This document shows positions 10,241-56,633 of a stretch of DNA of 64,000 nucleotides, in pieces. Position 1 is the stretch's first letter. The number at the start of each line of letters is the position of its first letter. The notes beneath the pieces were generated by a model. The model was not told where the DNA came from. It saw only the letters and a program-made list of their open reading frames with translations, and did no database searches. Both the position numbers and the translations under genes were made by a program. Source of the DNA: a virus; IMG/VR virus record IMGVR_UViG_3300037247_001689, positions 52,333 through 116,332 of that record; one strand, given 5' to 3'.

Positions 10241-11061
10241 TGGCTGATAAGTTAACAGCAGAAGAAGAAGCAAAGGCTAGAGAGCTTAAGCAAAAAACGA
10301 GTACGGAAAAGTCAAAACTGGATCAAATCGTTGATGGTGTTTCTGAAATGACAGACCTGTTAAAATCACAGGCCGGTGAAAAAAAGCCTGACGAAGATCC
10401 AAAAAAAGATGATTTGGACATGGATTTAAGTGTTGAGGATATGGCTAAAGCGATTATGGCTTCTGAAGATCCTAACAAAATGTTCAAAAGTTTGCTGGAG
10501 CATTGTGATGTTGGTCTTGAAAACATTTTGGATGAGAATCAAGAACGATATTACAGTGATGAAATGCTGAAATCGCTGGAAGATTCTACTGAAAAAACCG
10601 ACTTAGTGTTAAATGGCGTTATTCAGGCTGGCAAGGCTGCAAATGAAAGATACGCGAAAGCGTATTCTGTGAACGCAAAGATAATGCTGAGTATGATGAA
10701 GTCTTTTGGCGGCATGGTCTCAGAAATGTCCGAAATGAAAAAATCAATGACCCCTCCCGTAGCAGCAGATCCGGTCATTGAAAAAGAAATTGACACACCG
10801 TTAGGTGATGGAGCGGCAGTGCCTCCAAAATCACTTGATACTGATCTAAATGCAACAGGGGCGAAGTACACAACGGATCAGATGACATCTGCATTGAAAA
10901 AATCTTTCCAAGATACGGATCCTGTAAAGTATCACACGTATACCAAGCAGCTGCGTAAACTTGGCGGTGATGCAGATTTATTTTATTCACATCTGGATGG
11001 ATCTAACAGTCCATCAATCAGAGACGATGCATCAACGATGTTCATACATCTAATTAATTAA
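10240..11061 (+). CDS. capsid scaffold protein
   Basis: Charged, helical and low-complexity in its first 110 residues, as scaffolds are, with a Pro/Asp-rich linker around residues 185-200. The position between protease and major capsid protein makes scaffolding the natural reading. No sequence motif is diagnostic. Confidence 0.7.
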   Translation: MADKLTAEEEAKARELKQKTSTEKSKLDQIVDGVSEMTDLLKSQAGEKKPDEDPKKDDLDMDLSVEDMAKAIMASEDPNKMFKSLLEHCDVGLENILDENQERYYSDEMLKSLEDSTEKTDLVLNGVIQAGKAANERYAKAYSVNAKIMLSMMKSFGGMVSEMSEMKKSMTPPVAADPVIEKEIDTPLGDGAAVPPKSLDTDLNATGAKYTTDQMTSALKKSFQDTDPVKYHTYTKQLRKLGGDADLFYSHLDGSNSPSIRDDASTMFIHLIN

Positions 11062-13821: not shown

Positions 13822-15579
13822 ATGGCAAAAGTATTTCAATTTTTCGGTGCTACGGTATATAAACCGGGTGTCTATTCAAAGATATTAACGATTGGTGCGG
13901 GAACGCCAACTCCTGATGGTAATAACGCATTATTGATTATCGCTGAAGCTCCCAACGGTCCGGCTTTCGGTGAGACGGTTTCCGGTGGGAATGTGAACGA
14001 TTTTAAAATTGTCTTAGGCGAACAAGGACCAGCAATTGAAGCTGCATTTGGCGCTTTCAATGCTTCCCCAATCGGCGGCGCTCAGGATGTTAGGATATTT
14101 AACCCAAGGGCATTAGTTCAGGCAACTGATACTATTCACGTCACAGAGCCATCAACAACCCCATCCATTGATATAGCTAGTCGAATATATGGACCTATTG
14201 GAAACGGAGTTACTGTTAGTCTTGCTTCAACAATCGCTTCCGTAAAATTTCCATGGGCAGATGACGCGATCACACAGGTTATTGATAATCCGATTTTTGA
14301 CATTACATTAGCACTTGGTTTTATACAAGTTGACGCTACGAAAATATCAGTTGGACCAACGGGAAGTTTAATAGATTTTAAATTCACAGAGTACCTAAAA
14401 TTAATTGACCTAATTAACGCTATTGAATTTCAAACCGGCGCTACTATCGTAAAAGATACTAATACTTCTGACAACGAATCAACAGTAGACCTTTTTGATC
14501 ACATAGTTGCTGAACTTGATATAGCGACAGTAGTAACAATAAAGGGTGATTTATCTCAGTTATTTACATTTCTTGACCAGGGTGTTCCTGATCTTGAAGC
14601 TACTAAGCTTGCAACTGCAACGATAATGGTGGATGATTTTGATCTTACTTTATCCGGTGGCACTTCCGGTGTCGATCCAGATGCGACACAGTGGGGTAAG
14701 GTTTATGATGAACTTGAAAATCAAAAAATTGCTGTCACATGCCCAATCACTGACGGGTTACCAACTCCTTACGCTGACACTTTAACAGCCGCAATTAATG
14801 CACTAGATGAGCAACATGCCGTTAAAATGGCGGGTGTCAAATATAAGGGACGAAAACGACATTCATTTATTTCAGCTCACGGTGGGTTCGGGTGGTCAGG
14901 ACAATTTGTCGCTAAACCCTCAGATGCCGATGCAATTGTAACACTCGCGAAAACGCATAATTCAGAATGGTCCTGCTTTTTCGGGGATGGGTTGAACGCT
15001 TTTAACGAAGCTGGTATTGAGTATGCTCAACTACCTTGTTATTTCGCAGTCAGAGCAGCATCAATGTTCTTAGGCGGATTAGCAGCTAGAGTTATCACAG
15101 GTCAAACAGTAAACGCGATTCGTGCAAGTTCTCCATATTCAGGATCAAAAGAGCATTATACTGAAGCAGATGCTATCAAACTGCATAGAGCTTCTGTAAT
15201 TATCGCTGAAACGGATGAAGAAGGAACCAGAATTAGGCAGATGTACACCACTTGGACTCAAACTGATGATGCAAGGAAAACGGTACCATCCAGAGTTCGT
15301 TGTGCAGCCTTATCTGATAATGATCTTGCTAGAAAAATTGAAAGCAGAATTTCAGAATTTCAGCTAGACGGTATTACACCTGCAAACTCTGTAATGATCC
15401 GTTTCATGAAAAACGTTCTGAACTCTCATATTGGTAAAACTATTAAATGGGTGACCAGTTACGGAACAGTTACCTATTCACAAAAAGGAATTGAATTCCA
15501 ATACAACATTGCTGAACTTAATGTTCCAGAAATTCCAGAAATTGGGTTCGGAACAGTTGAATTTACTAATGCATCTTAA
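13822..15579 (+). CDS. contractile tail sheath protein, 585 aa
   Basis: Polymerises around the tail tube and contracts on infection. The N-terminus (VYKPGVYSKI, then LLIIAEAPNGPAFG and IEAAFGAF) and the C-terminal half (DDARKTVPSRVRC, ending in an ISEFQLDG and NVLNSHIGK segment) match the sheath family layout. Residues about 105-300 form the variable surface domain. The length is within the normal range. Directly upstream of the tube gene. Confidence 0.93.
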   Translation: MAKVFQFFGATVYKPGVYSKILTIGAGTPTPDGNNALLIIAEAPNGPAFGETVSGGNVNDFKIVLGEQGPAIEAAFGAFNASPIGGAQDVRIFNPRALVQATDTIHVTEPSTTPSIDIASRIYGPIGNGVTVSLASTIASVKFPWADDAITQVIDNPIFDITLALGFIQVDATKISVGPTGSLIDFKFTEYLKLIDLINAIEFQTGATIVKDTNTSDNESTVDLFDHIVAELDIATVVTIKGDLSQLFTFLDQGVPDLEATKLATATIMVDDFDLTLSGGTSGVDPDATQWGKVYDELENQKIAVTCPITDGLPTPYADTLTAAINALDEQHAVKMAGVKYKGRKRHSFISAHGGFGWSGQFVAKPSDADAIVTLAKTHNSEWSCFFGDGLNAFNEAGIEYAQLPCYFAVRAASMFLGGLAARVITGQTVNAIRASSPYSGSKEHYTEADAIKLHRASVIIAETDEEGTRIRQMYTTWTQTDDARKTVPSRVRCAALSDNDLARKIESRISEFQLDGITPANSVMIRFMKNVLNSHIGKTIKWVTSYGTVTYSQKGIEFQYNIAELNVPEIPEIGFGTVEFTNAS

Positions 15580-15593
15580 TTTTAAGGCGAAAA

Positions 15594-16151
15594 ATGGCAG
15601 ACACTATTAAAAAGAATTATGAACCGCCACAATGGTACCAAGACGGGATGGACGGTGCTGACGAAGCCGGTGATTTAAGATTCGTTCATTCCAGTGCAGC
15701 AATTGTCAGAATCGGTGAAGTCCCTATCGTGGCGCTTGAAAATGTATCGATCACTGTATCTATCGTCAGAAATCCAATTATGGTAATCGGATCACCTGTT
15801 GCTATAGGATTTGACTTCGGCGGTTATAATGCTAACATCTCAGGTCAGATAGTGATGAACGCAGCATCGACACTTAATAAGAGCCAATTTTTCGCTAAAA
15901 GTGTTAATGATCTGGTGGCAAATATCAATACAGTATTTGATATTGATATTCTTGCGCAAGACGCGAATGCTGAAAATGTTGATGAACGATTAACAGAACC
16001 GTTTATTATATTGAAAAATTGCCAGAACACAGGTGAAACAATTAATTTATCAACAAATGCCAACATTAGGCAATCGTTCACCGCTGTAGCAACATTCATG
16101 GAAAGGGATATTGCAGACGCACTGAAAGATTTCAATAAAATAGCAGCGTAG
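15594..16151 (+). CDS. tail tube protein, 185 aa
   Basis: Expected to form the inner tube. The order sheath, tube, chaperones, tape measure is diagnostic. The protein is beta-rich with a C-terminal helix (MERDIADALKDFNKIA). AAGGCGA lies upstream of the ATG. Confidence 0.85.
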   Translation: MADTIKKNYEPPQWYQDGMDGADEAGDLRFVHSSAAIVRIGEVPIVALENVSITVSIVRNPIMVIGSPVAIGFDFGGYNANISGQIVMNAASTLNKSQFFAKSVNDLVANINTVFDIDILAQDANAENVDERLTEPFIILKNCQNTGETINLSTNANIRQSFTAVATFMERDIADALKDFNKIAA

Positions 16152-16182: not shown

Positions 16183-16632
16183 ATGGCAGACAAAAAGAAA
16201 GACACAAAACCTATTGACAAAAAAACCGCAGCAGCAAAAAAGAAATGGGATGCATATGTCGGTAAAAAGCTAAAAAAAGCTAATTATCAAGATAGTGAAA
16301 GCACCTATGTTTTTGAATTTGATAATAAAGCATTTGAGTTTAGAATCCCCACCATATTTGAAAAGACAAAAATCAAAGCTATTCTAGCAAGCATCACACG
16401 TTTTCCAGGCGCAAATCTAACCACATCTTCACAGTTTGATATTTACAGTTCGGGTGATCTGGATCTGATGTATTCGACAAAGGCAATAACGCATACATCT
16501 GTATTAATGAACAACCCCACCGAATTTGATCCTGAAACATTTGGCGAAGAAAAAATATATGGATTAGGGGAATTGATCACATTCGCTGAAAATAAATTTC
16601 ATGAGAATAAAAAAAAACAATCTACCAAATAG
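16183..16632 (+). CDS. tail assembly chaperone, upstream frame
   Basis: A gpG-like chaperone that coats the tape measure protein during tail assembly. AGGAGACG precedes the ATG. The Lys/Ala-rich N-terminus is followed by a compact domain (residues about 30-140). The frame ends just after nine A residues, AAT AAA AAA AAA CAA in reading frame, where a -1 slip enters the long frame that continues to 17267. The unshifted product is 149 residues; the fusion would be about 361. Confidence 0.85.
   Translation: MADKKKDTKPIDKKTAAAKKKWDAYVGKKLKKANYQDSESTYVFEFDNKAFEFRIPTIFEKTKIKAILASITRFPGANLTTSSQFDIYSSGDLDLMYSTKAITHTSVLMNNPTEFDPETFGEEKIYGLGELITFAENKFHENKKKQSTK
16609..16617 (+). promoter_or_regulatory. 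-1 programmed frameshift site (A AAA AAA)
   Basis: Nine A residues in frame as three AAA codons, giving a perfect X XXY YYZ heptamer. A stop codon in the -1 frame lies at 16608-16610 just upstream, so the downstream frame can only be entered here. Place and direction agree with the lambda G/GT type of frameshift. Confidence 0.85.
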
Positions 16633-17267
16633 CAGTAGATGAAGTTTTTTCGATTGATTTTCTTTACCGTGAACATTTCAAGCTGACGAAAAATAGTGAT
16701 GACTATCTTAATGCAACTGATTATGATATTGAACTCTGGTATCATTCATATCAGGCTAAAAATAATCTCAAAACATTATCAAAAGGTTATGATTTAGAAG
16801 ATTCGAGCGCAACCAGTGCTGAATTAGGGGTCAAATATAAAGGTGATGTTTTAGAACAAAAAGCATTAGAATTTTGCGGTTTGAAAATTGAAGCACAAAA
16901 GGATATCCTGTTTTCATCGCTAATCGGTAAAAAAAGCAATGTACTTCAACAAAAAGACGATGCAGCTACAAGCACAATGGCAGTTGCTTTTGTTCAGTAC
17001 ATGCTAAATAATCTTGATAAGATTGGCAAAAAAGAAGCATGGTTAAATAGAACAGAATATCATAGTTTCAAAATTTTCATGAAACTTTCTGTCAAAGGGA
17101 AAACTCAATATCATAACGAATTGCAAAAATATCACGATACCGAAATGGGAAAACACAAACAGCCCCCACTCACACTCACTGAACCGGTGAAGGCTTCGTC
17201 TCCTGAGCCACACGTTCAGGGGGGCTGTCCCGATTTTAATGATCCTAAGAAGTGGGAGAAGATTTAA
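16611..17267 (+). CDS. tail assembly chaperone, frameshift extension (gpGT-like T domain)
   Basis: An open frame of about 217 codons in the -1 frame relative to the chaperone at 16183. It begins inside the slippery run and has no good start of its own; a TTG at 16881 lacks a ribosome site. Expected to be made only as the C-terminal part of the fusion, linking chaperone to tail tube protein. The C-terminus is Pro/Lys-rich (PPLTLTEPVK) and the stop overlaps the tape measure start (TAATG). Confidence 0.85.
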   Translation, partial: KKTIYQIAVDEVFSIDFLYREHFKLTKNSDDYLNATDYDIELWYHSYQAKNNLKTLSKGYDLEDSSATSAELGVKYKGDVLEQKALEFCGLKIEAQKDILFSSLIGKKSNVLQQKDDAATSTMAVAFVQYMLNNLDKIGKKEAWLNRTEYHSFKIFMKLSVKGKTQYHNELQKYHDTEMGKHKQPPLTLTEPVKASSPEPHVQGGCPDFNDPKKWEKI

Positions 17268-19276
17268 TGAGTGATGTCAGTATTCAAATAGATGCCCAAA
17301 CAGGGGATATCTCAGGTCTTCAAAAAATAGAAGCTGGTTATACTTCAGTACTCACCAAAGCACGTCAACTATTCCAAGAAATATCATCCCCCATTACAGC
17401 ACTTGCAGACAGGTCAAAACAAGCGAGAGGTCTTGAAGATTTAAGCCGGAAAGCCACTGAAATTGAGCAAAAACTAGCAAGGACAAGACTTGATCAACTG
17501 CAAGGCGTTGCTGGACCAATAACAGGTCCAGGATATATGCAAAGTTTAAAAGATGATCTTGAAGCGACAAATATTCAAAGGCAGATGGGGCAACAAGCAA
17601 TGGCACGACCTCAAATGGGGGGATTTGGCCAAAGAGCTTTAAGAATGGGCCGTTTTGCTGGTGGAAAAGCTTTAAGATATGGCGGTGCAATTGCTGGTAT
17701 TGCAGGGGCTTATAGTTTATTCTCTGGAATCGCCGAAAACATGGGATTTGCAAAACAATCTGAAGAAGATTATGCAATGGCATTGTCACAAGGTCGAGGA
17801 ATGATCGGTGGTGATTTTGGCGGGAAAGGTGGATTTTTTGCAATACGAGAAATATTGAATGATTTGGGTGATGTAGCACTGGCAACCTCAAAAGATATGT
17901 TGCCTCTTTTGGGAACCGCAAAAGAATTAGGAAATTTATCAGGTGGAAAAGGGGGATTTACCGGTCAATTTGCCGGTACTGTAAATTTAGCTAAAATGTT
18001 GGGCGTTGATACTGCCACGCTCAATCAATTATTCCAAGGTGGAATTCGCGGTGGTGGTTTTGGCGATACTGAACAAATGCGATTAATGAGCCAAGGGTTA
18101 ATGTTGAATCCCGCTATGAGATTTCGTGGCACAGAAGCGATACAATCATTTCAACAAATGATGGAAGGAAATGTTGGCGGTACTCAGCAACTTGGCGGGT
18201 TCGGAATGTTTAATCTCATGAACACGTTGAATGCATCCCCATTTTTAGCTTATCGTGGGGCTGGTGGTGCTCAAAGAATGTCAGGAATTAATCAGGCATT
18301 TACCCAAGGCGGCAACGAGAACATGCAATATTTTCAAGCGATGGCATTAAGCCCAGCTTTTCAATCAGCAAATAATAGAAGATTGGCGGCATATAATGCG
18401 ACACAAGGCGGTCCAACTGATTTTGGTTCGGGTAGATATGATCAGATAATAGCTGATGTTTTTCAGGAATTAGGAGCATTTGCAACCGCTGGAGATGTCC
18501 AAAAACAATTGTCGAGTTTAGGCTTTACCGGTGCGGCTAAATATGTTGGTGAACAGTACAAAGGGAACATGGGCAAAATGGGTATCCAAAATTTATTTGA
18601 ACGATACCAGACAGCATACGGAAAAGGAGAAGGTAACGAACTATTGATGACAGCACAGATGGCAAAAGATATGGGTGTTAGTTTTGCAGATGTCGGCGTT
18701 TTAAGAAAATCATTTCAAGATCCTGAATTTATCCGTTTAGCAAAAGAGGGAAAACTTGACCCTAAAGAAATGGCTGGTGCCTATGGAGCGTTTGAAAGTA
18801 AAGGTGCTGAAGGAATGACGGCTTATCTATCAACAAAAAGAAAGTCTGACCAAGCAATGCAGAAAATGGCAGAACACATCCAGACAATGGTTACAGATTT
18901 ATTGCCAGCATTGATACCAGCACTTGAGACGATGGCAGAGTATTTGCCTGTTTTTACTAAAAACATAGTGAAAGTAGCAGATTTTATTTTTGGTGGTACA
19001 CCTGAAACAGACCAGTCAACACAAAAAAGAGCGACGATACAAGCAGCTATAGAGATAACAAGAGAACCATCTGTTTTTTCGGAACATAAAAGAAGACTGG
19101 AAAAACAAAATATTCTTTATCCTGTAAGTGACGCACAAAGAGCAGCTGCAATCGCATCTGAGGAAATGTACAGAGGGGCTGGACCGCAAGGTGAAAATGC
19201 AGTCGGTGTACTAAAACAGATATTAAAAAAGATTGAAACGCCCACACTTAATCAAGGTGAGGTAGAATTAGAATGA
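17267..19276 (+). CDS. tape measure protein, 669 aa
   Basis: Sets tail length and may help DNA entry. The ATG at 17267 overlaps the chaperone stop (TAATG) and has GGAGAAG upstream; an in-frame GTG/ATG five codons earlier is less likely. Helical and Gly/Ala/Gln-rich, with a hydrophobic segment at about residues 135-160 (GGAIAGIAGAYSLFSG) and another near 545-565. At 1.5 angstrom per residue the tail would be about 100 nm. Overlaps the next gene by ATGA. Confidence 0.85.
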   Translation: MSDVSIQIDAQTGDISGLQKIEAGYTSVLTKARQLFQEISSPITALADRSKQARGLEDLSRKATEIEQKLARTRLDQLQGVAGPITGPGYMQSLKDDLEATNIQRQMGQQAMARPQMGGFGQRALRMGRFAGGKALRYGGAIAGIAGAYSLFSGIAENMGFAKQSEEDYAMALSQGRGMIGGDFGGKGGFFAIREILNDLGDVALATSKDMLPLLGTAKELGNLSGGKGGFTGQFAGTVNLAKMLGVDTATLNQLFQGGIRGGGFGDTEQMRLMSQGLMLNPAMRFRGTEAIQSFQQMMEGNVGGTQQLGGFGMFNLMNTLNASPFLAYRGAGGAQRMSGINQAFTQGGNENMQYFQAMALSPAFQSANNRRLAAYNATQGGPTDFGSGRYDQIIADVFQELGAFATAGDVQKQLSSLGFTGAAKYVGEQYKGNMGKMGIQNLFERYQTAYGKGEGNELLMTAQMAKDMGVSFADVGVLRKSFQDPEFIRLAKEGKLDPKEMAGAYGAFESKGAEGMTAYLSTKRKSDQAMQKMAEHIQTMVTDLLPALIPALETMAEYLPVFTKNIVKVADFIFGGTPETDQSTQKRATIQAAIEITREPSVFSEHKRRLEKQNILYPVSDAQRAAAIASEEMYRGAGPQGENAVGVLKQILKKIETPTLNQGEVELE

Positions 19277-24826: not shown

Positions 24827-25197
24827 CAGCGGGTGCGAATTTTGAGATCGTAAATAATAGAGTTCAGTTCTGGAAAACGTTGGTAACGGGTGATAAATTA
24901 ATCACCCAGGATCATGAGGCTAGATTTGGCCAGCGACAAGGCTCATATAATCCTGAGCAACAATACGGAAACCCTTATGTAAACACATTATCTGACGACT
25001 CAATCAGTGAAACAGAACGAGACTTATTGCTTGTTTCTCAAACAAAAGAATGTTCATTACAGGATGACAGAATCATTGACGCGGTTGTCGATACAACATC
25101 AATAGTTAGAAAAGGGACAGAAATATCTTTCAAGTACAAACTTTTTAAAACTTCAGGTGGTTCAATTCAGAGAGATTTTAGCAGTGACAACAATTAG
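24823..25197 (+). CDS. probable baseplate wedge protein (gpW/gp25 position), 124 aa
   Basis: Small acidic protein directly before the gpJ-like gene, where gpW/gp25 wedge proteins usually stand. It contains SETERDLLLVSQTKECSLQDD and IDAVVDTTSIV, loosely like the gp25 region for local Tyr/Asp repeats. The assignment is mainly by position. It overlaps the next gene. Confidence 0.5.
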   Translation: MTAGANFEIVNNRVQFWKTLVTGDKLITQDHEARFGQRQGSYNPEQQYGNPYVNTLSDDSISETERDLLLVSQTKECSLQDDRIIDAVVDTTSIVRKGTEISFKYKLFKTSGGSIQRDFSSDNN

Positions 25198-26323
25198 AAC
25201 AAAAGATGATTATGTAGCGAAATCAATTGAGGCGATTGAACAACGAACCCCTTCTGATATTCAAAATGAAACTGGTTTTGATTTCAGAAAAGCAGCGCCA
25301 CTCCGTTCATATGTTGAGGGCCTTTCGATTGTCGTTGCGGTTTCTGATCAACAAAACGAAGCTGAAGTTAAAAAACAAGCGAGGGAGTCGTTATTTTTCT
25401 TGGCAGGGGTCGAAACATTTACCGCAAGTAAAGCAAGCGGGGCATTATCAATTACTTCGACACAGGCAATAACAATACCAGCCGGTGAACCCGTATACTC
25501 AACAGAATTTGGTACCAGAGTTGGTGAAGTAATCATAGAAGTAGTATTCGCAAGTGCTGAAACATTAGACGTTGATATGATTTCTGATGAAGCAGGGGCT
25601 GATGTCGTTTTTGTACAGAATGATCTTTTTATACTTGCTGATAATCAATCAGGTGGAAATCTAACAATTATTAATAACGGAGCTGATGAAGAATCAGACT
25701 ACGACAGGTCAAAACGGATAAGATCAGCACTGCTCGCAAAAACAAGTGGAACTGTTCAGGCGCTTACAGATGCGGCCAATAACACGGTATTGATCGATGG
25801 TGGCTCAGGGAACATTATTGAAAGTGTTATAAGTGTGTTTATGTCATTTCCATGGAAAGTTCTTGATCCAAATACAATTGACCCTACGAGATTAGGCGAA
25901 ATTGTAATGTCGATTCAATCAAGTTTAGGTGTTCCTAGCCAAGACATGCTTGATGCAATAGAACTCAACTTGGTCGGTACTGATGAACTTGACCCACAGG
26001 GAAGACAAGGAGCTGGTCAAAATGTATTATTATTGCCAGTTGAGACAGAAGATGTCGCTTTTTCAGTTCCTTATAAAAAAGTAGTTGGCGGTGATCATTC
26101 TCAAGTCACGCTCGATATCCAAGGTCAGATTACAACATTTGTTGATTCACTAGTACAAGGACAAGACCTTGTACCGACTAATTGGCAAGCAGCGATATCA
26201 GGTGATAATAAACCGGATGATGTTGATTATTATGATGAAGGAAATCTAACACCTTCAACAGTTTTGCCGATTGATACCGACAAGATTTGGAATATTACAG
26301 CAATAGTAGTCACGGAAATATAA
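25184..26323 (+). CDS. baseplate J-like protein, 379 aa
   Basis: Wedge component at the periphery of the baseplate. The motif EESDYDRSKRIRSALLAKTSGTVQALTDAA matches the conserved E-x-D-x-x-x-R-x-R region of gpJ proteins, preceded by a beta-rich segment with IPAGEPVYSTEFG. The GTG at 25184 within the previous gene is preferred to a GTG 27 bases earlier. Confidence 0.82.
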   Translation: MTTIRTKDDYVAKSIEAIEQRTPSDIQNETGFDFRKAAPLRSYVEGLSIVVAVSDQQNEAEVKKQARESLFFLAGVETFTASKASGALSITSTQAITIPAGEPVYSTEFGTRVGEVIIEVVFASAETLDVDMISDEAGADVVFVQNDLFILADNQSGGNLTIINNGADEESDYDRSKRIRSALLAKTSGTVQALTDAANNTVLIDGGSGNIIESVISVFMSFPWKVLDPNTIDPTRLGEIVMSIQSSLGVPSQDMLDAIELNLVGTDELDPQGRQGAGQNVLLLPVETEDVAFSVPYKKVVGGDHSQVTLDIQGQITTFVDSLVQGQDLVPTNWQAAISGDNKPDDVDYYDEGNLTPSTVLPIDTDKIWNITAIVVTEI

Positions 26324-54868: not shown

Positions 54869-55014
54869 ACCCACACACAATCGGACAAATATTTCTTGCT
54901 ATCGTTATTTTACTTGCTTTGTATGGTCTATATAATATAAGTTATAAAATAAAAAGACTATTCATTAAAAGAAGTAGAAGAAATAACGGAATTATCGGGG
55001 ATTACAAGGGATGA
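54865..55014 (+). CDS. small membrane protein, 49 aa
   Basis: ATGA overlaps with both neighbours make translation very likely. One membrane segment (residues about 7-27: GQIFLAIVILLALYGLYNI), then a basic tail (KRLFIKRSRRNNG). Possibly anchors a helicase or replication complex to the membrane. Confidence 0.6.
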   Translation: MNPHTIGQIFLAIVILLALYGLYNISYKIKRLFIKRSRRNNGIIGDYKG

Positions 55015-56633
55015 AAAGTATCAGTTTATCAGGGGATCAATTTTTTAAAGATTTTTATTACTTCCAAAGAGAAGCTGTTGAGGCATCAATAAAACATTTA
55101 GTAGAAGAAAAAAAAAGGAATGGTGTAATTGTACAGCCTACTGGTAGCGGAAAGACATACACATTGGCTGGTCAAGTAAAAGTATTTGCAGGTGATTACC
55201 AAGGACGAGTTTTGATGGTTTCTCATACCAAAAATATTGTGGACCAAGACCATAAAACCGCAAAAAAATTATGGAAGGAAGGATCGCACTTATTCGGCGT
55301 AAACTCAGCAGGACTAGGCAGGAGAGATTTTAATAAACAAGTGCTGTTTACAGGTATTCAAAGTGTTTATAAAGACGCAAAAAAGATTGGTAAAGTTAAT
55401 TTTTTAATACCGGATGAATGCCACGCAATTAATATGGTCGATTCAGTAATGTATAAACAGTTTATTGAAGATCTTTATGACATAAATCCTGATATGAGGG
55501 TCGGGGGATTAACTGCTCATGATTTTAGAATGACAATGGGTAAAATATGGGGGCCATCAAAAGACCTACTTTTTGACGATTTAATTTACAAAGCCAATGT
55601 AAAAGAACTGATTGCTCAGAAATATATATCAAAGCCGATAAACCCACCAATAAAAGATGAAAAAGCTCTTATTGATACGACGGGTGTTGAGATAATAAAA
55701 ACCAAAAATGATACTGAATACAATCAGCAACAACTTGATGAACGGGTAAATATACCAGATAAAATTAAGCGCCAAACCAAGATTGTACTAGATGGAAGCT
55801 TACCCCACGAGTCAATCGCATCATTTGCGCATAATATTAAACATTGTGAACTAATCGCACAGAGTTATATTGATCAAGGTGAAAAATCGATTGCTGTTGT
55901 CCACTCAGAAATTAAAGGTGATGAAAAAAAATTAATAGAAGATTTTAAATCCGGTAAGATAAGGGTTCTGGTAAGCGTTAATATGTTCGTCGAAGGGTTT
56001 GACGCTCCAAATATCCAAGTAATTGACGACAGAAAGCCAACGGCATCCCCTGGCAGATATGGGCAAATGGGCGGACGTGGTTTTAGAGTTTGTAAAGAAA
56101 TAGGAAAATATAGTTTTAAATACTTCTGTTTCTCAGGAAACGTTGGCTTGCATGGTCCCCTTGATCAGATCGAATCATACGCAAGTGAAGATACAGACGA
56201 ACCGCCATTCAAAAGATGTAAAGGTCATGGTTGCAAAATGATGGTACATGCGAGAATGAAAATTTGTCCTCATTGCGGTTATATTTTCCCCGTAAAAGAA
56301 ATTGATCCGAAAGACAGAACGCTTGATACACTTGATTTAAACTCTCTTATTTCCGAACCAAAATGGTTCACTGTAAAAAGAATGATGTGCCAGCCATCAA
56401 AGAATAAAAACGCGATATCTGCTCAATATATTTGTGAAGGGCTTAAGCCAAGAGCCGATATTGAGTACAATGACGATGGAATTACCTGGCTAAAAAATCA
56501 TCTTGGAAATGATATCCCTTTCGACATCACAAACTTTTTCAACGGTGGGTATCGGTCTAAATTAACACCACCTAAGCGAATCTTTGTTGATGAAGCCGGT
56601 TTGGCATCAAAGATTTTGAAATATGAATTTTAA
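55011..56633 (+). CDS. SF2 helicase with C-terminal zinc finger, 540 aa
   Basis: DNA or RNA helicase of the type III-restriction/UvsW-like group. Motif I PTGSGKT (43-49), motif II DECH (135-138), and in the second RecA domain VNMFVEGFDAPN (323-334) and QMGGRGFR (352-359, motif VI). Residues 403-422 bind zinc with C-x4-C and CPHC. The length of 540 is normal for a phage branch-migration or origin helicase. Confidence 0.88.
   Translation: MKSISLSGDQFFKDFYYFQREAVEASIKHLVEEKKRNGVIVQPTGSGKTYTLAGQVKVFAGDYQGRVLMVSHTKNIVDQDHKTAKKLWKEGSHLFGVNSAGLGRRDFNKQVLFTGIQSVYKDAKKIGKVNFLIPDECHAINMVDSVMYKQFIEDLYDINPDMRVGGLTAHDFRMTMGKIWGPSKDLLFDDLIYKANVKELIAQKYISKPINPPIKDEKALIDTTGVEIIKTKNDTEYNQQQLDERVNIPDKIKRQTKIVLDGSLPHESIASFAHNIKHCELIAQSYIDQGEKSIAVVHSEIKGDEKKLIEDFKSGKIRVLVSVNMFVEGFDAPNIQVIDDRKPTASPGRYGQMGGRGFRVCKEIGKYSFKYFCFSGNVGLHGPLDQIESYASEDTDEPPFKRCKGHGCKMMVHARMKICPHCGYIFPVKEIDPKDRTLDTLDLNSLISEPKWFTVKRMMCQPSKNKNAISAQYICEGLKPRADIEYNDDGITWLKNHLGNDIPFDITNFFNGGYRSKLTPPKRIFVDEAGLASKILKYEF

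What the first reader, a model, noticed from the sequence alone, without database searches (positions are those of the whole stretch)
16609..16617. -1 frameshift on nine A residues joins the two tail-chaperone frames
The upstream frame reads AAT AAA AAA AAA CAA and the -1 frame is closed by TAA at 16608-16610 and then open to 17267. The resulting gpG/gpGT-like pair lies directly before the tape measure gene. Both the slip site and the gene order agree with the known lambda-type arrangement; the length of the fusion would be about 361 residues.
Basis: partly seen in the sequence, partly recalled or inferred. Interest (0 to 1): 0.65.

Follow-up and report, generated by a model that had tools for sequence, protein, structure and literature searches.

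The report
Frameshifted tail-assembly chaperone gene pair
Two overlapping genes in an unclassified tailed phage are almost certainly read as one longer protein through a slip on nine adenines, an ordinary way for phages to make their two tail-assembly helper proteins, here shown to be conserved in two distant relatives.

Summary
A9 (16609-16617) ends an upstream frame (16183-16632, 149 aa). The -1 frame opens right after TAA 16608-16610 and runs to 17267; a slip gives a 361-residue fusion. Both keep exactly nine A in the same phase, at chaperone identities of only 35-44%. A_AAA_AAA is the only slippery heptamer in the 22-nt interval where a shift can occur. The second frame has no ATG/GTG/TTG before 16881. 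Genome-wide, in-phase AAA AAA AAA is strongly avoided (1 seen, 14 expected), and this is the only copy. Gene order is sheath, tube, chaperone pair, tape measure, so this is a myovirus (P2-like rather than lambda-like). Neither frame matches a PHROG or Pfam family, and links to named chaperones are weak. Whether the ribosome or RNA polymerase slips is open: no stimulatory RNA structure was detected, and A9 is long enough for polymerase slippage. I favour ribosomal -1 shifting. This is a new member of a known kind, in a poorly represented phage lineage.

The parts
16183..16632 (+). upstream frame, short chaperone (gpG/gpE-like), 149 aa, TAG 16630-16632
   Evidence: ORF with AGGAGA ribosome-binding site (-8.1 kcal/mol); homologues in L007 and L008 at 35-36% identity
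16609..16617 (+). A9 slip site; heptamer A_AAA_AAA = 16611-16617
   Evidence: only X_XXY_YYZ heptamer in the shift interval; conserved in phase in L007 10831-10839 and L008 10759-10767
16608..16610 (+). TAA closing the -1 frame immediately upstream; the shift must happen in 16611-16632
16611..17267 (+). second (-1) frame, C-terminal part of the long chaperone (GT/E'-like); in the fusion its first new codon is ACA 16617-16619
   Evidence: 218 aa, 42-44% identical to the second frames of L007 and L008; no ATG/GTG/TTG before TTG 16881
17267..19276 (+). putative tape measure protein, 669 aa; ATG overlaps the TAA of the second frame
   Evidence: position between chaperone and hub; homologues in L007, L008 and L013 at 35-38% identity; no family hit
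15594..16151 (+). putative tail tube protein
   Evidence: position between sheath and chaperone; L008 homologue weak to Pfam Phage_tube_2, E 0.038, below cut-off
13822..15579 (+). tail sheath protein
   Evidence: 59-62% identical to homologues that match PHROG 279 tail sheath, E 4e-18 and 1e-15
25157..26323 (+). baseplate J / wedge protein (context: contractile tail)
   Evidence: Pfam Baseplate_J 1.4e-12; PHROG 6 4.8e-18

Best explanation
[quoted passage not shown] Most ribosomes read 16183-16632 and stop at TAG, making a short chaperone. A minority slip back one base on A_AAA_AAA inside the A9 run (two tRNA-Lys re-pair perfectly with AAA) and continue in the -1 frame to 17265, making a 361-residue chaperone with a 216-residue C-terminal extension. 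By analogy with lambda and P2, many short copies coat the tape measure protein and the few long ones recruit tube subunits. Shown: sequence, frames, conservation, lack of a start codon, gene order. Inferred: that both products are made, that the ribosome is the slipping machine, the ratio, and the chaperone activity. Component confidences: fusion made from the A9 site 0.95; tail chaperone role 0.88; ribosomal rather than transcriptional 0.7.
For: A9 in the same phase in three phages whose chaperone proteins share only 35-44% identity, while both flanks have diverged. Homology of the 0 frame ends at the A9, and homology of the -1 frame begins there. Both parts show coding-type substitution (third positions differ most: 0.60-0.68 and 0.56-0.66). 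The shift interval in the window is only 22 nt and A_AAA_AAA is the only slippery heptamer there; likewise the only one in L007 (115 nt) and L008 (91 nt). There is no ATG/GTG/TTG in the second frame before 16881 (window) or 10902 (L008). In-phase AAA AAA AAA is avoided genome-wide except here. The gene lies between tube and tape measure in all three. The literature gives high shifting on A runs (A7 10%, A9 40%, PMC3711429) and AAAAAAA as a proposed tail-assembly slip site (PMC6256562). Shift direction is the same in 3 of 3, which PMC3711429 takes as pointing to ribosomal shifting.
Against: No downstream structure beyond shuffles in any of the three (z +0.33, -0.12, -0.31) and no upstream Shine-Dalgarno-like stimulator (-2.7, -4.1, -1.1 kcal/mol), so the usual ribosomal stimulators are missing. 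A9 is the length at which bacterial RNA polymerase slips (PMC5009743). Neither frame has a recognised family match.
Confidence: 0.66

Rival explanations
1. Transcriptional slippage: RNA polymerase adds one A (or drops two) at the A9 run, so a fraction of mRNAs encode the fusion in one frame and ordinary translation makes the 361-residue protein.
For: Run is 9 A in all three phages although tandem tRNA slippage needs only seven. Slippage at runs of 9 A or T is efficient in E. coli and used by Thermus dnaX (PMC5009743). No RNA structure or SD stimulator is conserved. A runs of 8 or more are avoided in genes in all phases, not only in phase.
Against: Known tail-chaperone cases are described as ribosomal. 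Shift direction is the same in 3 of 3 orthologues, the criterion PMC3711429 uses for ribosomal shifting, though three related phages are few. The two extra A are explained by a conserved Lys codon.
Confidence: 0.27
2. Independent or re-initiated translation of the second frame as a separate protein.
For: L007 has ATG 10803 in the -1 frame upstream of A9; in the window ATA 16629 overlaps the TAG.
Against: Window: no ATG/GTG/TTG before TTG 16881, which would delete about 90 conserved residues. L008: none before TTG 10902. No candidate has a ribosome-binding site (+2.2 to -3.3 kcal/mol against -8.0 to -10.0 at the real starts of the first frame). Start positions are not shared.
Confidence: 0.03
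3. Assembly error in a homopolymer: the true sequence has A10 (or A7) and the gene is one frame, or the gene is broken.
For: Homopolymers are error-prone and this is a metagenome contig.
Against: Three independent metagenome records show exactly nine A at the same codon; both frames are under protein-level constraint.
Confidence: 0.02
4. The frame change is real but the pair is not a tail chaperone.
For: No family hit; structure models have pLDDT about 69 and no significant match.
Against: Position between tube and tape measure in three phages. Weak fold match of the first frame to LP65 Orf100 (E 0.016, prob 0.97), which sits between sheath/tube genes and the next long tail gene of that phage, and to annotated tail assembly chaperones. 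Second-frame profile matches the Touem01 second frame over 29 columns, P 9e-4.
Confidence: 0.07

Closest known systems
P2-type gpE / gpE+E' tail chaperone frameshift (myoviruses)
   Same: two overlapping frames, -1 shift, between tube and tape measure, contractile tail
   Different: no detectable sequence similarity by PHROGs/Pfam; slip site is A_AAA_AAA in A9 (P2 site is a T-rich heptamer, own knowledge)
Lambda gpG / gpGT
   Same: -1 frameshift near the end of the upstream frame, directly before the tape measure; long form with C-terminal extension (PMC5009743)
   Different: lambda heptamer is G_GGA_AAG (own knowledge) and lambda lacks a sheath; here the extension (216 residues) is longer than the short protein
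Paenibacillus larvae phage tail assembly pairs with proposed AAAAAAA slip site (PMC6256562)
   Same: same heptamer, same gene order
   Different: unrelated phages, prediction only; run length there not stated as nine
Thermus thermophilus dnaX transcriptional slippage at nine A/T (PMC5009743)
   Same: homopolymer of nine makes two products from one gene
   Different: there RNA polymerase slips and the longer product is the unshifted one; here the longer product needs the shift
Lactobacillus phage LfeInf and LP65 tape measure chaperones (Herelleviridae)
   Same: joined chaperone CDS before the tape measure in LfeInf; weak fold match to LP65 Orf100
   Different: no sequence match (hhalign P 0.23 to the LfeInf short form)

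Membership tests
Frameshifted tail assembly chaperones (lambda G/GT, P2 E/E+E') | two overlapping frames joined by a -1 shift near the end of the first | tested here: met
   same in L007 and L008
Frameshifted tail assembly chaperones (lambda G/GT, P2 E/E+E') | slippery heptamer X_XXY_YYZ in the overlap, conserved in relatives | tested here: met
   A_AAA_AAA, sole heptamer in the interval in three phages
Frameshifted tail assembly chaperones (lambda G/GT, P2 E/E+E') | gene lies between the major tail (tube) gene and the tape measure gene | tested here: met
   sheath by PHROG 279 in homologues, baseplate J; tube and tape measure by position and conservation only
Frameshifted tail assembly chaperones (lambda G/GT, P2 E/E+E') | second frame has no start of its own | tested here: met
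   met in window and L008; L007 has ATG 10803 without ribosome-binding site
Frameshifted tail assembly chaperones (lambda G/GT, P2 E/E+E') | homology or shared fold with a known chaperone | tested here: inconclusive
   no PHROG/Pfam/tblastn hit; Foldseek E 0.016 to LP65 Orf100; hhalign P 9e-4 to Touem01 second frame
Frameshifted tail assembly chaperones (lambda G/GT, P2 E/E+E') | both products made, long form minor, absent from virions, needed for tails | not testable with these tools
   needs proteomics and genetics
Transcriptional slippage genes (Thermus dnaX type) | homopolymer of nine or more A or T | tested here: met
   A9 in three phages
Transcriptional slippage genes (Thermus dnaX type) | mRNAs with added or missing A | not testable with these tools
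   needs RNA sequencing
Transcriptional slippage genes (Thermus dnaX type) | shift direction not kept among orthologues (criterion of PMC3711429) | tested here: inconclusive
   direction is the same in 3 of 3, but only three related phages

The most novel reading that the evidence does not exclude
The short-to-long chaperone ratio in this phage lineage is set by RNA polymerase slippage on A9 rather than by the ribosome, a route for which I found no established tail-chaperone case in the papers searched.
Probability: 0.25. Interest if true: 0.55.

Novelty: new member of a known kind. Interest (0 to 1): 0.3.

Why it matters
It extends the frameshifted tail chaperone to a contractile-phage lineage whose tail proteins mostly match no PHROG or Pfam family, and gives an annotation handle there: an in-phase AAA AAA AAA, otherwise avoided in the genome, marks the chaperone. 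It would also let one test whether ribosome or polymerase slippage sets the chaperone ratio at a bare A9 site with no detected stimulator.

Tried and rejected
Near-identity and protein searches of known phages with both frames gave nothing. Downstream RNA structure: none beyond shuffles. Rfam: none. Genome collection: sheath query found nothing; hub query found a scaffolded MAG (CP070742.1) holding pieces of a fourth relative, but the slip site falls into assembly gaps, so it neither supports nor opposes. Further scans of viral contigs with MCP, hub, sheath and chaperone profiles returned only the same two relatives. Structure models (pLDDT about 69 from three-row alignments) gave no significant fold match. 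Independent start, re-initiation and assembly error were considered and rejected as stated under rivals.

Full report
Observation. The window is the right part (52333-116332) of a 116,332-base IMG/VR virus record. It contains AAT AAA AAA AAA CAA with nine A at 16609-16617. The -1 frame is stopped by TAA 16608-16610 and then open to TAA 17265-17267. A slip at A_AAA_AAA (16611-16617) gives 145 + 216 = 361 residues. The shift can only happen in 16611-16632, 22 nt, and A_AAA_AAA is the only X_XXY_YYZ heptamer there.

Context. Upstream lie head genes (maturation protease; major capsid protein similar to Herelleviridae-type capsids), a tail sheath (homologues match PHROG 279) and a likely tube. Downstream lie a likely tape measure, whose ATG overlaps the stop of the second frame (TAATG), a hub-like gene and baseplate J. 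It is therefore a myovirus. Tube and tape measure are named from position and conservation, not from family hits.

Relatives. A scan with the sheath found L007, and with a two-sheath profile L008. Both have the same gene order. L007: 10351-10848, CGG AAA AAA AAA GTA TCA TAG, A9 at 10831-10839, -1 frame to 11483. L008: 10324-10788, CGG AAA AAA AAA GTC ... TAG, A9 at 10759-10767, -1 frame to 11390. First-frame proteins are 35-36% and second-frame proteins 42-44% identical to the window. After the A9 the 0-frame tails (QSTK, VS, VSTEEP) are short, while the -1 frame continues at once with shared sequence (T-IYQIAVDEVFSI, S-IIEQSIDNVFSI, S-LYRRAVDDVFSI). Third codon positions vary most in each part in its own frame. 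A fourth relative in a Zixiibacteriota MAG has its slip site in assembly gaps.

Statistics. In 119 ORFs of 100 aa or more, 29 Lys-Lys-Lys triplets occur and one is AAA AAA AAA, this one, although AAA is 78% of Lys codons. With codons shuffled among synonymous sites 14.0 are expected (no shuffle of 500 as low); A runs of nine or more in genes: 2 against 18.6 expected. The same single in-phase copy is found in the fetched parts of L007 and L008, where the numbers are too small for a test. PMC5009743 reports the same avoidance in E. coli.

Start codons. In the window the second frame has no ATG/GTG/TTG before TTG 16881, and in L008 none before TTG 10902. In L007 ATG 10803 lies upstream of the run but has no ribosome-binding site (-3.3 kcal/mol against -8.0 to -10.0 at the first-frame starts; background median -2.4). 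The second frame is thus conserved over about 210 residues and reachable only through the first.

Mechanism. A fusion made by slippage on A9 is close to certain on comparative grounds. Ribosomal -1 slippage is my choice because tail-chaperone precedents are ribosomal, AAAAAAA has been proposed for such pairs (PMC6256562), A runs shift well in reporters (A7 10%, A9 40%, PMC3711429) and the direction is the same in three orthologues (criterion). Against it, no structure or Shine-Dalgarno stimulator was found, and A9 meets the length at which bacterial RNA polymerase slips (PMC5009743). Avoidance of A8+ runs in all phases does not decide between the two. The frameshift is thus supported, but 'ribosomal' is inferred.

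Function. By analogy with lambda (PMC5009743): short chaperone on the tape measure, long form recruiting tube subunits. Neither frame has a family match. The first-frame model resembles LP65 Orf100, which lies between the sheath/tube genes and the next long tail gene, weakly (E 0.016). The second-frame profile matches the second frame of Pseudomonas phage Touem01 over 29 residues (P 9e-4). These are leads, not proof.

Verdict.

Noticed in passing
window 55108-55116: The only other A9 run in a gene of this genome, near the start of a 540-codon ORF (55011-56633), read G AA AAA AAA A GG (not in the in-phase AAA AAA AAA register). Could be a slip site or alternative-start region.
   Followed up: partly
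L013 and L016 (CP070742.1, Candidatus Zixiibacteriota MAG): Pieces of a related myovirus lie between runs of N at two distant places of a scaffolded 'chromosome', one with capsid/sheath/tube, one with tape measure/hub; either a split prophage or a binning/scaffolding artefact.
   Followed up: partly
L005 8067-8697 (Pseudomonas phage Touem01): The chaperone pair before the tape measure seems to need a +1 or -2 shift (CGC AAA AAA CCG region); the second frame is annotated only as a hypothetical protein.
   Followed up: no
window genome, all ORFs: A runs of 7 or more in coding strands are depleted (71 against 110.6 expected; A8+ 14 against 46.7) while T runs are not clearly so.
   Followed up: partly
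window 17252-17280 and L008 11388-11392: Stop of the second frame and start of the tape measure overlap as TAATG in the window and L008 (not in L007), so tape measure translation could be coupled to ribosomes that have shifted.
   Followed up: no
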